Notes under the pieces: model-generated
Seen by the model: the letters and a program-made list of their open reading frames with translations, nothing else
Databases searched by the model: none
Told to the model about the DNA's origin: nothing
Origin: Massilibacteroides sp.
Lineage (GTDB): Bacteria > Bacteroidota > Bacteroidia > Bacteroidales > Tannerellaceae
Assembly: GCF_028705895.1 (NCBI RefSeq)
Contig: NZ_JAQWCQ010000013.1
Coordinates: 1 to 64,000 of the forward strand
Reading direction: 5' to 3'
DNA length: 64,000 bases
Program-made: the position numbers and the translations under genes
Part shown: in pieces, positions 3,130 through 55,923 of the stretch
How the letters are laid out: every line of letters begins with the position of its first letter
Numbering within the stretch: the first letter of the stretch is position 1

Positions 3130-3900
3130 TTATCCCTCTTCCTGATTATTTTCCATCTCTTTTACCTTTCGGAAAAGATCGGATGCAAAAATAAAATCAT
3201 TTAATGCCTTATTGTTGGAAGTGATGACCTGATGTTTGTCACCCTGCCATTCCATGATACCTTCCTTAATAAAGATGATATTGTCTCCGATATTCATTAC
3301 AGAATTCATATCATGTGTATTTATTACGGTAGTCATTTTATATTCCTTCGTGATGGAATAGATCAGATCGTCGATAATAAGTGATGTTTTCGGATCAAGA
3401 CCGGAATTTGGTTCGTCACAAAAGAGGTACTTGGGTTGAAGAGCTATCGCTCTGGCAATGGCCGCTCTTTTCATCATCCCACCACTGATTTCGGAGGGGT
3501 ATAAATGACCAGAGTCGGAAAGATTAACACGATCAAGACAGAATTCTGCTCTTTTTCTTCGTTCGCGAGCGGAGTCTTTTGAAAATACATCCAAAGGAAA
3601 CATCACATTTTCAAGAACCGTCATACTGTCAAACAAGGCTGAACCTTGAAATAACATTCCCATCTCCCGACGCAAAAGTTTTAAGTCAGACTTGCTCATA
3701 TTCAGAAAATTGCGACCATCGTAAAGAATCTCCCCCGAATCCGGTGTCATCAGGCCGATAATATTCTTTATCAATACGGTTTTACCTGATCCGCTTCGTC
3801 CAATGATCAGATTTGCTTTACCATCTTCAAACAGAGCACTTATATTGTTCAGGACAATACGTCCGTCAAACGTTTTTGTAATATTTTTAACCTCTATCAT
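3130..3900 (-). CDS. mlaF: ABC transporter ATP-binding protein, MlaF-like
   Basis: A 256-residue ATPase of the phospholipid/lipid-transport (Mla/Mkl) ABC family. Visible motifs are Walker A GRSGSGKT, the signature ISGGMMKR and Walker B LFCDEPNSGLDP; the MMKR form of the signature is typical of MlaF rather than of LptB. It lies 2 nt behind the permease gene on the same strand, so the two form an operon. The partner substrate-binding protein (MlaD/MCE) is not in the window. The complex is expected at the inner membrane, moving lipids between inner and outer membranes; the direction is not shown by sequence. Confidence 0.9.
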   Translation of the reverse strand: MIEVKNITKTFDGRIVLNNISALFEDGKANLIIGRSGSGKTVLIKNIIGLMTPDSGEILYDGRNFLNMSKSDLKLLRREMGMLFQGSALFDSMTVLENVMFPLDVFSKDSARERRKRAEFCLDRVNLSDSGHLYPSEISGGMMKRAAIARAIALQPKYLFCDEPNSGLDPKTSLIIDDLIYSITKEYKMTTVINTHDMNSVMNIGDNIIFIKEGIMEWQGDKHQVITSNNKALNDFIFASDLFRKVKEMENNQEEG

Positions 3901-51000: not shown

Positions 51001-51837
51001 ATGATTTATGGTTATGTAAGAGTCAGTACTGACAAGCAGACCGTTGAGAACCAACGGTATGAAATTAATGAGTTTGTCAAGAAAGAGGAGATTGGAATAG
51101 ATTCCTGGATAGAGGAAACTGTTTCAGGGAGTAAGGAAGTAGATGAACGCAAACTGGGTTATGCTTTACAGCGAATGAATAAGGGTGATGTACTTATTTG
51201 TGCTGAGCTTTCTCGTTTGGGGCGTAATCTTTTAATGATTATGGGGCTTCTGAATCAATGTATGAGGCAAGGCATACAGGTGTGGACAATAAAAGATAAT
51301 TATAGACTGGGAAATGACATCAGCTCTAAGGTTCTGGCTTTTGCTTTTGGCTTGAGCGCAGAGATTGAGCGTAACCTGATCTCACAACGCACGAAAGAGG
51401 CACTTGCCAGAAGAAGGTCTGAAGGAAAGGTATTGGGAAGGCCGAAAGGTAGTCGTTCAAAAGTGCGTAAACTTACAGGCAAGGAGGGGACTATCGAGAA
51501 GTTGCTTGAACAGAAAATTTCGATCAGTATGATTGCCCGGAAATTGAAAGTTCATCGCTTGACGGTAACGTCTTTTATCAAAGACTTCCTGCTTGAAAAG
51601 AAAATTACCATCAATGGAAATACGCTTTATTTGGATGGCCGTATTTTTTTTCGACACAAGCGATCGTCGGGCATCTCAGAGTGGCAACCGGAGACTTCCA
51701 GCACTTTAGAAGCCTCAAATCACAGATTTCCATTGGGTATGATAAAGGAGAAGTTAGAAAGGCTGTGTCATATAAAAAATGATCCAAGTGTTTCTCAATT
51801 GTTGACAATTTGGCATTTAGGACATGACTCGGTATAA
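51001..51837 (+). CDS. Serine site-specific recombinase (invertase/resolvase family)
   Basis: 278 residues from the ATG at 51001. Catalytic Ser9 is in IYGYVRVSTDKQ; the second conserved block is ICAELSRLGRN, and the arm region ends in GRPKGSRSK, followed by a helix-turn-helix (ISMIARKLKVHRLTVTSFIKD, about residues 180-200). This is a small DNA-invertase type enzyme, like the promoter invertases of Bacteroides. A further 75 or so residues after the HTH match nothing recognised and are unusual for the group. It is the immediate upstream neighbour of the S-layer-like gene and the obvious candidate to invert that gene's promoter. Confidence 0.9.
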   Translation: MIYGYVRVSTDKQTVENQRYEINEFVKKEEIGIDSWIEETVSGSKEVDERKLGYALQRMNKGDVLICAELSRLGRNLLMIMGLLNQCMRQGIQVWTIKDNYRLGNDISSKVLAFAFGLSAEIERNLISQRTKEALARRRSEGKVLGRPKGSRSKVRKLTGKEGTIEKLLEQKISISMIARKLKVHRLTVTSFIKDFLLEKKITINGNTLYLDGRIFFRHKRSSGISEWQPETSSTLEASNHRFPLGMIKEKLERLCHIKNDPSVSQLLTIWHLGHDSV

Positions 51838-52249
51838 AGACTAATTACCCTTTCTGTTTATTAGAGGTTTAACCGTGATTACCTTTCTTTAGAGAAGGGG
51901 AGGAGGTGTTTTGTGTTTATTGAATAGCTCTCTTTTGTTAAAATGTGTCTGATCTTTAACGATTTATGGGCTTGCGTCTCACAAAATAAATAGACGTTTA
52001 TTTAGTCATAAATATCTTCCAAAAGAATGTCTGTAAAGAGACTCTTTCAGCAAGCCGAATTTTTAATTTAATACAGGTTAGGGGGAAATAATCAGGAATT
52101 AGTGTTTAGAACGGCTTGAAAAAACAAAAAACGAATACTTATTATGACCAATTAATATCATCAGCAAAGATATATATAAGATTAACATAACCAATACCTT
52201 TATACGATTTTTTATTTTATGCTAACGTATTCTTATCCATTGAATATCC

Positions 52250-52258
52250 TTTGCTATA
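52250..52258 (+). repeat. Left inverted repeat of the putative invertible promoter
   Basis: TTTGCTATA, reverse complement of the copy at 52331-52339. It lies within a 22-bp imperfect dyad (52240-52261, TTGnATA...TATnCAA) of the form expected for a serine recombinase crossover site. Confidence 0.5.
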
Positions 52259-52288
52259 CAAAAGTAAGACTTTTCACAACAAACTCAA
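52259..52288 (-). promoter_or_regulatory. Promoter pointing away from the S-layer gene (OFF orientation)
   Basis: On the minus strand TTTG (52285-52288), 18 bp, then exact TACTTTTG (52259-52266). It sits between the 9-bp inverted repeats; inversion would place it 70-80 bp before the S-layer start codon, facing it. Confidence 0.55.
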
Positions 52289-52330
52289 ATATCTTCTTTC
52301 GAAAACTGTATAATTTAATTGGTGGTATAA

Positions 52331-52339
52331 TATAGCAAA
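52331..52339 (-). repeat. Right inverted repeat of the putative invertible promoter
   Basis: TATAGCAAA, reverse complement of 52250-52258. It lies inside a dyad TATAAT (52326-52331) / ATTATA (52343-52348). Confidence 0.5.
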
Positions 52340-52416
52340 CTGATTATATCGCCTTAAAAGGCTGATTCTTTAGGACTTTTAATTAATACAGTTATTAATA
52401 ATAAATTAATTTGATT

Positions 52417-55400
52417 ATGAACAAGAAAATTTCTACTTTTTTAGTCGGCGCCCTGCTGACTGTAAGTGCTGGAGTTTTTGCACAAGCACCCGGACACGGT
52501 TTTGATTACCGCTCTCAGAGTGTGTTTAGTGCTGCATCAGTAGGTTCTGATATCTCTGAATTCGATCAAGATCAGTGGTATCAGATTAATGTAATAACAA
52601 AAGCGGAACAAGAGAGTGCGGACTATGGATTTTACAAGCCAACTCAATTAGGTTCCTGGATTTTTCTAGATGGTGAATGGTATTGGCAGTCGAACAAGCC
52701 GATTTCTCAATTTTCTGGACATGGACATGGACATGGACATTGGATAGATACTCCTGAACCGAGAACTTCATCTGAAGCTGAAGGTAAAGGTGAATGGGTA
52801 AAACGATTTGGATTTAATGTATGGCTTTTTAAACATACTGCATCAGGACCTGCTCCTTCTTCTCCAGAGTCTAATCAAGTGTTGATTCAAGAACGTTTGA
52901 CCACAGGCCAAATAATCCTGAAAGTTGTTGAAGCTGAAGACGCTCCTATAAATGCATCTTTGTGGAAAGTGGTTTCTGCTGACGATTCATTCAGTGGGAA
53001 GAATTTCACATTAATAAATAAGGAAACAAATCTTCCAATTGTTATCGACCTTGGTAAAACGGTTAAAGCTAACGACAATATAGATGTTGATGATGTTGTT
53101 GTTGGAAAAAAAGCTACTGTTTTAGAAGGTTGCTTAGAAAACTGGGCATGGTACACTACTGAAGCTACAGATGGAACATTTGACTTTGAAGATTTCTATA
53201 CATATGAAGGTGACAACGTATATGCACTTGGTAAGAAAGATAATGGTGAAGTTGTTGTAGTTAAATATGCAAAGGCTGTTGCCGGTTCACATGTTCAATT
53301 GTTGGAAAATAATCTCCAATTTAAGCCTGTTTTAGCAGCACCTATAAACTTAGATGCTAACGGTATCAATTCAATGGTTGATTTTCAGGATGCTGTTGAT
53401 GGTACATTCAAATTATCATTCAAAAATTCTGAACCAAAAGCTACTCCTTTCTTTGGAACAAAATTTGTCGCAAAAGATGCCGCTGATGATCTTTTAGATC
53501 CTGATTTTGTTAAAACTGTAACTACTGAAAACTTTGTAGTTTTGGAAAATGATGATAAATACCTTGCGGTTGATGCTGCATTCTATGAATCAGATCGGAA
53601 GCCGTCTTTAAGCAATCTGAAATTTGCTCTAACTACATTTGGAGATTTGCAAGAAGCGACTTCAGCTGCCTTTACAGATATTCTTGTTTCTGCTCGTTTT
53701 CAATACGCATTCTATTTCTACCCAAGCACTGAAACGTTGGATATCAAAGTAGCAAAAGGTGGTGTGGCTATTTATTCAGATGCAGACTATACAGCCGGTA
53801 ATAATTGGTCAAATGCGACTACATTAGAAAACGAAACAGTTGAAGATGCTTATGTAAGAATAGCTGATTCAAATGATGATAAATTATTGACCGCTGCTCC
53901 AAAAGAAATTAATGAAACATATCCTTCTCCGGGTTCTATTTTAACTACGATATCTTTCGAAGGAAGAAACTTCACATATGTAGAAGACTACAGAACAACA
54001 TTCAAGACTGGTTTGTATTTCATCAAGAACAAAGAAAACGGTAAATATTTAGTTGCGAACTTCAATGGTACATTCCAATGGGATGCTCCGGCAGAAGACC
54101 AAAACTACAATAATATGCCTGCTACTCAATGGGTAATTGATTCATTGACTTGTGGTATTGGTGAATTAGCTATCACTAACCGTGAATTTGGTGTAAAGGA
54201 TGAGCCACTTTTTAAAGGTCAACTTTATGAAAAAGATTATGTATTCTATGTTAATCCAACTGCTTCAGATGTTTTGGATCAAGCAGGTGAATATGAAATC
54301 GTTGCAGTAACAGACGAAGCAGCCTTAACTGATAAGAATCATGGTTATAAATATTTAGATGCAAATGAAATTGATTATACGCAGTATTATCTGCACTATA
54401 ACCAAAAGGTTAATAGTGATTTGTATTTGAATATTACGGATGAAAACTTCTTTGCTGCTGTTGAAGGTTTGAATTCTTCTTACGAATTGATTCCTGACGA
54501 GCCTGAAAAATTCGGTTATGTTGGAACAACAAAATTGAAAGAGCTGGAAAAGACAGCCTATACAATTAAAGTAAAAGATGTTAATCTGATTGATAACGAC
54601 AAGAACTTCATTGCATTGGTGGAAGAAGTAGGTAAACCAGCATATTATAAGGTAGTTGAAGCTAAGGATGCCACTAAATTCTATCTGAAATCAGATCAGG
54701 TACAAGGTGAAACTGAATATTATGTTCTTATTGATCTTCAGACACCATCTGTACAGGCTCACGTAGAAGATGGTACTGCTAAGTTGAATTATACAGACTT
54801 GGATAATAAACCAAATGACAGAGCTTCTGCATTTACATTGTCTGTTGATCCTCGTCCTAAATACTTATCAGTAGAAAACGGATCAGTAGTTAAGATCTAC
54901 CGTGAAAGAGGTACCGCAAAAGAATTCTTGTTTGAAGATGGACACAACCAAAGTAAAGTTAGTACTCTTAATGAATCATTTGGTTATCTTGGGGTAACAG
55001 CTGAAGGTTTGATCCCTGTGGGTGAAAACAGTACAACTGCAATCTATCTTGATTCAGTAGTAAACTCTAATCCTCACATGCCTCAATACTTGTTCGTATT
55101 AAGTCCGGATTCAGTAAAAGACGGAAAATGGCATGGAACAAAGGGTTATAACTATCTTGAAGATGCTTGTACACAGTGTATTAGTGATTATAATGGTTAC
55201 TTAGCTGGTCGTTTCTTAGTAAATTTGGAAGACTCAACAAAAACTACATACAAATTCCAGGACTACACACGATTTGGTTATGTAGAAGGAGTTCACCGCG
55301 TAGAAGGTGATAAGGAATACCTTTATATTGTAAAAGCCGGTAATACACTGGAATCATTGACTGAAAAATGGGGTGTTATAGAACCTAAAGCATTTGAAGA

Positions 55401-55923
55401 TTCAAAGATTTTTGATAAAAAAGTCTTAGATGGATCACATAAGAATTATGCATTCTCATTCCGTTTGACAGAAGATATAAAAGAAGCATTGAGTGAAAAT
55501 CCGATCTTGTTAGAATCTAATGGTCCTGAAGCTAAGATTGGAGGTTTTGAAGGTGGTTGGTTGAAAGTTCATAACAATGTCCCTGTAGTAGCTAAGATCA
55601 ACTACTCAACAACAGGTCATGACGATGAAAGTGCTACCATCAGCGAATTGATCAACCAGGCTCAGGTTCTTCATGTAACGACTACAGACGAACTTCCTGT
55701 TGCAAACAAAGACTTAAATGTAAACGATGTTCAAGTTATAGCTGGACAAGGTTCTGTAGTTATTTACAATGGCGCTAATAAGAGTGTAGTTGTAACTAAC
55801 ATTCTTGGTCAGACTATAGCAAGTACAGTGTTAACATCTGATGAAGTTTCTATCGTTGCTCCTAAGGGAATCGTGGTAGTTGCTGTTCAGGGTGAAAAAG
55901 CTGTAAAAGCAATCGTAAAATAA
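52417..55923 (+). CDS. Large secreted S-layer-like protein with C-terminal DUF6383-type domain
   Basis: 1168 residues from the ATG at 52417 (MNKKISTFLVGALLTVSAG); a TTG two codons earlier is not needed. Signal peptide cleaved near VFAQ. No enzyme motif is seen; the body is acidic, Asn/Asp/Lys-rich and beta-strand-like, with few Cys. The last 65 or so residues (GQGSVVIYNGANKSVVVTNILGQ to the end VKAIVK) resemble the DUF6383 domain and the beta-sandwich tails that sort proteins to the surface. At least four sites fit the phylum's O-glycosylation motif (DSL, DSV twice, DST). Best read as an S-layer glycoprotein whose promoter is switched by the neighbouring recombinase. Confidence 0.75.
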   Translation: MNKKISTFLVGALLTVSAGVFAQAPGHGFDYRSQSVFSAASVGSDISEFDQDQWYQINVITKAEQESADYGFYKPTQLGSWIFLDGEWYWQSNKPISQFSGHGHGHGHWIDTPEPRTSSEAEGKGEWVKRFGFNVWLFKHTASGPAPSSPESNQVLIQERLTTGQIILKVVEAEDAPINASLWKVVSADDSFSGKNFTLINKETNLPIVIDLGKTVKANDNIDVDDVVVGKKATVLEGCLENWAWYTTEATDGTFDFEDFYTYEGDNVYALGKKDNGEVVVVKYAKAVAGSHVQLLENNLQFKPVLAAPINLDANGINSMVDFQDAVDGTFKLSFKNSEPKATPFFGTKFVAKDAADDLLDPDFVKTVTTENFVVLENDDKYLAVDAAFYESDRKPSLSNLKFALTTFGDLQEATSAAFTDILVSARFQYAFYFYPSTETLDIKVAKGGVAIYSDADYTAGNNWSNATTLENETVEDAYVRIADSNDDKLLTAAPKEINETYPSPGSILTTISFEGRNFTYVEDYRTTFKTGLYFIKNKENGKYLVANFNGTFQWDAPAEDQNYNNMPATQWVIDSLTCGIGELAITNREFGVKDEPLFKGQLYEKDYVFYVNPTASDVLDQAGEYEIVAVTDEAALTDKNHGYKYLDANEIDYTQYYLHYNQKVNSDLYLNITDENFFAAVEGLNSSYELIPDEPEKFGYVGTTKLKELEKTAYTIKVKDVNLIDNDKNFIALVEEVGKPAYYKVVEAKDATKFYLKSDQVQGETEYYVLIDLQTPSVQAHVEDGTAKLNYTDLDNKPNDRASAFTLSVDPRPKYLSVENGSVVKIYRERGTAKEFLFEDGHNQSKVSTLNESFGYLGVTAEGLIPVGENSTTAIYLDSVVNSNPHMPQYLFVLSPDSVKDGKWHGTKGYNYLEDACTQCISDYNGYLAGRFLVNLEDSTKTTYKFQDYTRFGYVEGVHRVEGDKEYLYIVKAGNTLESLTEKWGVIEPKAFEDSKIFDKKVLDGSHKNYAFSFRLTEDIKEALSENPILLESNGPEAKIGGFEGGWLKVHNNVPVVAKINYSTTGHDDESATISELINQAQVLHVTTTDELPVANKDLNVNDVQVIAGQGSVVIYNGANKSVVVTNILGQTIASTVLTSDEVSIVAPKGIVVVAVQGEKAVKAIVK
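52717..52740 (+). repeat. Hexanucleotide tandem repeat in the S-layer-like gene
   Basis: Four perfect GGACAT units encode alternating Gly-His (HGHGHGH) about 100 residues into the protein. Unit changes would keep the frame, so length could vary without inactivation; the His run may bind metal. Confidence 0.7.

What the first reader, a model, noticed from the sequence alone, without database searches (positions are those of the whole stretch)
51838..52416. S-layer-like gene with a promoter that appears invertible and is OFF in this sequence
Seen: the only TTTG-n18-TAnnTTTG promoter in the 579-bp gap reads leftward, away from the S-layer-like gene. It is bounded by 9-bp inverted repeats TTTGCTATA/TATAGCAAA (52250-52258 and 52331-52339), each embedded in a larger dyad. 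Inversion of the roughly 90-bp segment would aim the promoter at the gene. Known: Bacteroidales use serine invertases to switch surface genes, and Parabacteroides S-layer glycoproteins have been reported as phase-variable through promoter inversion. Inferred: the recombinase encoded next door acts on these repeats. An alternative pair, ACCAATTAA/TTAATTGGT (52147-52155, 52315-52323), would give a 177-bp segment.
Basis: partly seen in the sequence, partly recalled or inferred. Interest (0 to 1): 0.75.

Follow-up and report, generated by a model that had tools for sequence, protein, structure and literature searches.

The report
Invertible S-layer promoter, currently OFF
A gut-type Bacteroidales bacterium carries a surface-coat gene whose promoter sits on a roughly 177-base DNA segment that a neighbouring recombinase probably flips, and in this genome it points away from the gene; this is a new example of a known kind of on/off surface switch, with its boundaries corrected here.

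Summary
The 579-bp gap lies between an intact Mpi-family serine recombinase and an S-layer-like (DUF6383) gene. It holds a promoter module that reads leftward, away from the gene. The favoured TTTGCTATA pair gives no gain. Neither repeat is significant alone (2 seen, 1.34 expected). There are two leftward promoter matches. In a sister species with the same gene order, two contigs overlap by exactly 127 bp and break on the last base of the repeat, which suggests both orientations were in the reads. In two complete related genomes the orthologous segment lies in opposite orientations, with Mpi-type sites at the breakpoints. Across the family, 47 of 52 modules with clear inverted repeats are OFF, and 21 of 25 without are ON. 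Phase-variable S-layer glycoproteins are already known in Parabacteroides distasonis, so this is a new member of a known kind. Inversion in this strain is not shown.

The parts
51001..51837 (+). Mpi-family serine recombinase, 278 aa, intact, with about 75 aa beyond the 203-aa Mpi model
   Evidence: NCBIfam NF009949 322.5 bits, cut-off 272; Pfam Resolvase 2.4e-33; aligns to the DNA invertase and gamma-delta resolvase catalytic domains, VRVST and SRLGR motifs kept
52147..52323 (.). Proposed invertible promoter segment (177 bp), in OFF orientation
   Evidence: Inverting it in silico raises alignment to L038 from 79 to 180 and to L037 from 44 to 138; L035 and L036 prefer it as it is. Unbiased endpoint scan: optimum within about 15-27 bp outside these ends
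52147..52155 (+). Left recombination site arm ACCAATTAA
   Evidence: Core (Y)CAATTAA in the same place in L035, L036, L038 and L195
52315..52323 (+). Right recombination site arm TTAATTGGT
   Evidence: Perfect inverted partner; followed by GGTATAATAT, conserved outside the segment in L035, L038 and (as GGTATAAAATAT) L195
52165..52194 (-). Main promoter: TTG-N19-TATCTTTG, reads leftward (away from the gene) in this assembly
   Evidence: Exact Bacteroidales -7 element; invariant in all five same-genus modules
52230..52239 (-). Invariant box TGGATAAGAA inside the segment, function unknown
   Evidence: Identical in all five same-genus modules
52259..52289 (-).
   Evidence: Exact -7 only in the window copy
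52417..55923 (+). S-layer-like surface protein gene, 1168 aa, leader MNKKISTFLVG..., C-terminal DUF6383
   Evidence: PF19910 7.3e-25; same leader and C-terminus as the gene family downstream of this module across the family
52250..52258 (+).
   Evidence: Not supported by relatives; such repeats are expected by chance

Best explanation
This is a phase-variation switch for an S-layer-like surface protein. A segment of about 177 bp (52147-52323) carries the gene's promoter and is bounded by short Mpi-type sites with core CAATTAA. The adjacent Mpi-family serine recombinase inverts the segment. In the sequenced (OFF) state the promoter starts near the left site and reads toward the end of the recombinase gene. 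In the ON state it would start next to the right site and give a leader of about 105 nt before the S-layer ATG. Shown: module anatomy, orientation, breakpoints near the ACCAATTAA pair by comparison, conserved gene order, opposite orientations among relatives. Inferred: that this recombinase acts on these sites, that inversion occurs in this strain, and that P1 is the working promoter.
For: The recombinase is Mpi family by curated cut-off and intact. Two same-genus loci carry the segment reversed relative to the gene, and two in the window's orientation; only inversion at the 177-bp pair reconciles them. In sister species G002 the same order (recombinase, 173-bp segment with 11-bp arms, S-layer gene) is split over contigs C5 and C8. 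These overlap by exactly 127 bp, and C5 ends on the last base of arm TACGATCAATT. The 127-mer occurs nowhere else in G002, so the assembly-graph branch fits two orientations in the reads rather than a repeat. In complete genomes G106 (ON) and G049 (OFF), flanks are collinear and a 207-bp segment is inverted at 86% identity, with AACGTACGTTTT at both ends. That matches the published Mpi repeat ARACGTTCGTN (PMC8375218). Modules with arms scoring at least 11: 47 OFF, 5 ON; without: 4 OFF, 21 ON. No exact + strand TAnnTTTG lies in the gap. In B. intestinalis, invertible promoters of 183-186 bp start transcription inside the proximal repeat (PMC8375218), as predicted here.
Against: The window's arms are only 9 bp and not significant alone. 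The unbiased endpoint scan peaks at 52129-52132/52344-52350, outside the arms, so the comparison gives ends good to only about 15-27 bp. The own-genome contig is unbroken and no alternative orientation was found in it. L037 and its syntenic copy in the own genome (C15) lack repeats, so L037 may be a fixed locus rather than a flipped one. No reads or expression data were available.
Confidence: 0.82

Rival explanations
1. The locus is a relic locked in the OFF orientation: it descends from an invertible switch, but its sites have decayed and no longer recombine.
For: Arms are only 9 bp, against 11-14 bp in G002 and longer in Parabacteroides-type genomes. A decayed sister locus exists in G001:C28, with repeats but no S-layer gene. 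No alternative orientation in the own assembly.
Against: Recombinase intact; promoter and box conserved; site core conserved.
Confidence: 0.13
2. The segment is the 90-bp one between TTTGCTATA and TATAGCAAA.
Against: Inversion there gives no alignment gain to any oppositely oriented relative. The repeats are not conserved in relatives, and this many repeats are expected by chance.
Confidence: 0.02
3. The gene is expressed from a fixed promoter and the leftward promoters serve something else, such as an antisense or small RNA against the recombinase.
For: IR-less modules elsewhere are fixed ON. A weak sigma-70-like match lies at 52116-52145 +. The leftward promoter faces the recombinase 3' end.
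Against: No + strand TAnnTTTG in the gap. Sigma-70 hexamer matches are at the chance level (2 found, 3.6 expected) and Bacteroidales use another promoter type. Relatives show the same module facing the gene.
Confidence: 0.03

Closest known systems
Phase-variable S-layer glycoproteins of Parabacteroides distasonis (Fletcher et al. 2007, cited in PMC8400631 and PMC11647740; original not held)
   Same: S-layer-type surface proteins, switched by DNA inversion, in the same family of bacteria; nine such glycoproteins reported. G049 here shows nine module-bearing S-layer loci.
   Different: The window's genus has a single switchable locus in this genome, with its own recombinase next door and a diverged site core (CAATTAA rather than AAACGTACGTTT).
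Mpi of Bacteroides fragilis and its capsule promoters (Coyne et al. 2003; site ARACGTTCGTN in PMC8375218)
   Same: Same recombinase family by NCBIfam cut-off; short inverted repeats around a promoter segment of about 180-200 bp.
   Different: Mpi is a global regulator of about 13 regions (PMC4747536); here the gene sits beside one S-layer target and the protein carries an extra C-terminal stretch.
BT1927 S-layer switch of Bacteroides thetaiotaomicron (PMC12548429)
   Same: S-layer gene under a promoter flanked by inverted repeats; mostly OFF (about 1 in 1,000 cells ON).
   Different: Its repeats (CCGTTACCTABVRAGTAAC, next to site-specific integrases; PMC12118408) are unlike those here.
B. intestinalis PVR capsule promoters (PMC8375218)
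   Same: 183-186 bp segment, 10-bp repeat GTTCGTTTAA, transcription start inside the proximal repeat, Mpi homologues in the genome.
   Different: Controls capsule operons; no recombinase beside the locus was noted.

Membership tests
Mpi-family serine DNA invertase | Match to the curated Mpi model above cut-off | tested here: met
   NF009949 322.5 bits against 272
Mpi-family serine DNA invertase | Intact resolvase catalytic domain | tested here: met
   PF00239 2.4e-33 full length; catalytic motifs align to invertase 4m6f
Mpi-family serine DNA invertase | Acts on ARACGTTCGTN-like repeats | tested here: inconclusive
   Window core is ACCAATTAA; L035 and L038 carry ACGTTC/ACGATC before CAATTAA, a partial likeness; Parabacteroides-type relatives have AAACGTACGTTT
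Mpi-family serine DNA invertase | Catalyses inversion in vivo | not testable with these tools
   No reads or mutants; only an assembly-graph sign in a sister species
Phase-variable S-layer promoter switch | Promoter between inverted repeats upstream of the surface gene | tested here: met
Phase-variable S-layer promoter switch | Both orientations occur at homologous loci | tested here: met
   G106 against G049 orthologues; L038 against L035 and L036; survey
Phase-variable S-layer promoter switch | Both orientations in this strain | not testable with these tools
   Own assembly shows only OFF
Tannerellaceae S-layer-like proteins | Signal leader and DUF6383 C-terminus shared with the family | tested here: met
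   PF19910 7.3e-25; leaders
Tannerellaceae S-layer-like proteins | Forms a surface lattice / is glycosylated | not testable with these tools
   Needs protein work

The most novel reading that the evidence does not exclude
The family uses a two-tier S-layer design: usually one module-bearing gene with a fixed, repeat-less ON module plus a battery of repeat-flanked genes kept mostly OFF. In the window's genus the global Mpi system has become a private, locus-bound switch with a diverged site and an extended recombinase.
Probability: 0.4. Interest if true: 0.5.

Novelty: new member of a known kind. Interest (0 to 1): 0.38.

Why it matters
It gives exact, testable coordinates for a surface on/off switch in a little-studied Tannerellaceae genus. 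It extends the Parabacteroides S-layer switching family with a module that can be recognised by sequence across most family genomes sampled. If the two-tier pattern holds, it makes testable why isolates carry many silent surface coats and one constant one, which bears on phage escape and immune recognition.

Tried and rejected
Repeats alone as evidence were rejected. Strict one-ON-per-genome exclusivity was considered and rejected: G106, G100 and G046 have more than one ON module. L037 as proof of inversion was downgraded, because it and its syntenic copy G000:C15 lack repeats and appear fixed. The genome-contig scan by recombinase returned distant relatives but no same-genus strain. The own genome showed no alternative orientation. 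The Fletcher 2007 paper is not held; its content is taken from citing papers. A first attempt to hand in this report was returned for a formatting fault only.

Full report
What is there. The gap 51838-52416 separates a serine recombinase (51001-51837) from a 1168-aa S-layer-like gene (52417-55923). The recombinase passes the curated Mpi cut-off (322.5 against 272 bits) and has an intact resolvase domain. The surface protein has a signal leader and a C-terminal DUF6383 domain. It is the only copy of this recombinase in the genome; three DUF6383 proteins are present.

The observation. Shuffling the gap gives 1.34 such repeats on average, so two are unremarkable. Two exact Bacteroidales -7 elements read leftward and none rightward.

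Where the segment ends. Same-genus loci L035 and L036 have the module in the window's orientation; L037 and L038 have it reversed relative to the gene. Inverting the window in silico at 52147-52323 raises its alignment score to L038 from 79 to 180 and to L037 from 44 to 138. Inverting at 52250-52339 gives 67 and 46. L035 and L036 prefer the window as it is (218 against 98; 115 against 56). A scan of 6624 endpoint pairs peaks at 52129-52132/52344-52350, so the comparison places the ends only to about 15-27 bp. The sole perfect repeat of 9 bp or more in that zone is ACCAATTAA/TTAATTGGT. Its core is shared with sites at the other genus loci: AACCGTCAATTAAA (L036, 14-bp arms, 0.012 expected), TACGATCAATT (L038, 11-bp arms, 0.046 expected), ACGTTCAATTAAT (L035, left) and GACAATTAAT (L195).

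Does it flip? For the window strain this is not shown: its contig is unbroken and the reverse form was not found. In sister species G002 the same gene order is split between contigs C5 (recombinase) and C8 (segment plus S-layer gene). They overlap by exactly 127 bp, and C5 ends on the last base of the left arm, exactly where the two orientations would first differ. The 127-mer is not repeated elsewhere in G002. A 127-bp overlap is what an assembler using 127-mers leaves at a graph branch (own knowledge), so this suggests both orientations were in the reads. That G002 recombinase has a stop after codon 202, still Mpi length; a second full-length copy lies at C4.

Family context. A sequence profile of the module found matches in 63 of 70 family genomes (E at most 0.01, weak ones included). 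Of 88 loci fetched, 77 could be called ON or OFF. With arms scoring at least 11: 47 OFF and 5 ON; without: 4 OFF and 21 ON (Fisher P about 1e-10). The loci are related, so that P value is only indicative. The window itself falls in the 'without' group at that threshold. In G106 (ON) and G049 (OFF), orthologous loci have collinear flanks and a 207-bp segment inverted at 86% identity, with AACGTACGTTTT at the ends. This matches the Mpi repeat ARACGTTCGTN (PMC8375218). The family contains Parabacteroides: G009's contig C5 has the same length as a contig of Parabacteroides sp. PF5-6 (inference).

Mechanism. Recombinase dimers bind the two sites, pair them and invert the segment. OFF: P1 fires leftward toward the recombinase 3' end. 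ON: P1 fires from beside the right site with a leader of about 105 nt. That transcription starts inside the proximal repeat has been reported for B. intestinalis (PMC8375218). Binding, strand exchange and transcription here are inferred.

Comparison with what is known. Phase-variable S-layer glycoproteins switched by inversion are reported in P. distasonis (PMC8400631, PMC11647740, citing Fletcher 2007), and a phase-variable S-layer in B. thetaiotaomicron (PMC12548429). The finding is therefore a new member of a known kind. Its small distinguishing points are the recombinase sitting beside one S-layer target, the diverged site core and the extended recombinase C-terminus.

Noticed in passing
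L227 (G020), L197 (G053), L200 (G056): The same promoter module lies between two divergent S-layer genes, so inversion would swap which of two coats is made rather than switch one off. G020 has a 28-bp imperfect repeat with a 342-bp span.
   Followed up: partly
G049, G106, G100, G016, G023, G103, G046 module loci: Each genome has one (G103: two) repeat-less S-layer module in the ON direction among the loci sampled, plus 3-9 repeat-flanked modules mostly OFF.
   Followed up: partly
window 51601-51834: The recombinase has about 75 aa beyond the Mpi model with no Pfam match above cut-off; kept in sister copies G001:C28 and G002:C4, cut off by a stop in G002:C5.
   Followed up: partly
window 51838-52158: In the OFF state the promoter would transcribe antisense into the recombinase 3' end; no leftward terminator-like site was found between them. 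Possible feedback.
   Followed up: no
L195 (G001:C28) 3480-3630: A decayed sister locus: recombinase and repeats GACAATTAAT/ATTAATTGTC remain, the promoter is degraded and no S-layer gene follows.
   Followed up: yes
L193 (G000:C15:48045-48212): The own genome has another module, syntenic with G002 L037, at a contig end 38 bp after the module; its S-layer gene is not on that contig.
   Followed up: partly
window 52230-52239: A box TGGATAAGAA is identical in all five same-genus modules, between the two promoter-like elements; role unknown.
   Followed up: no
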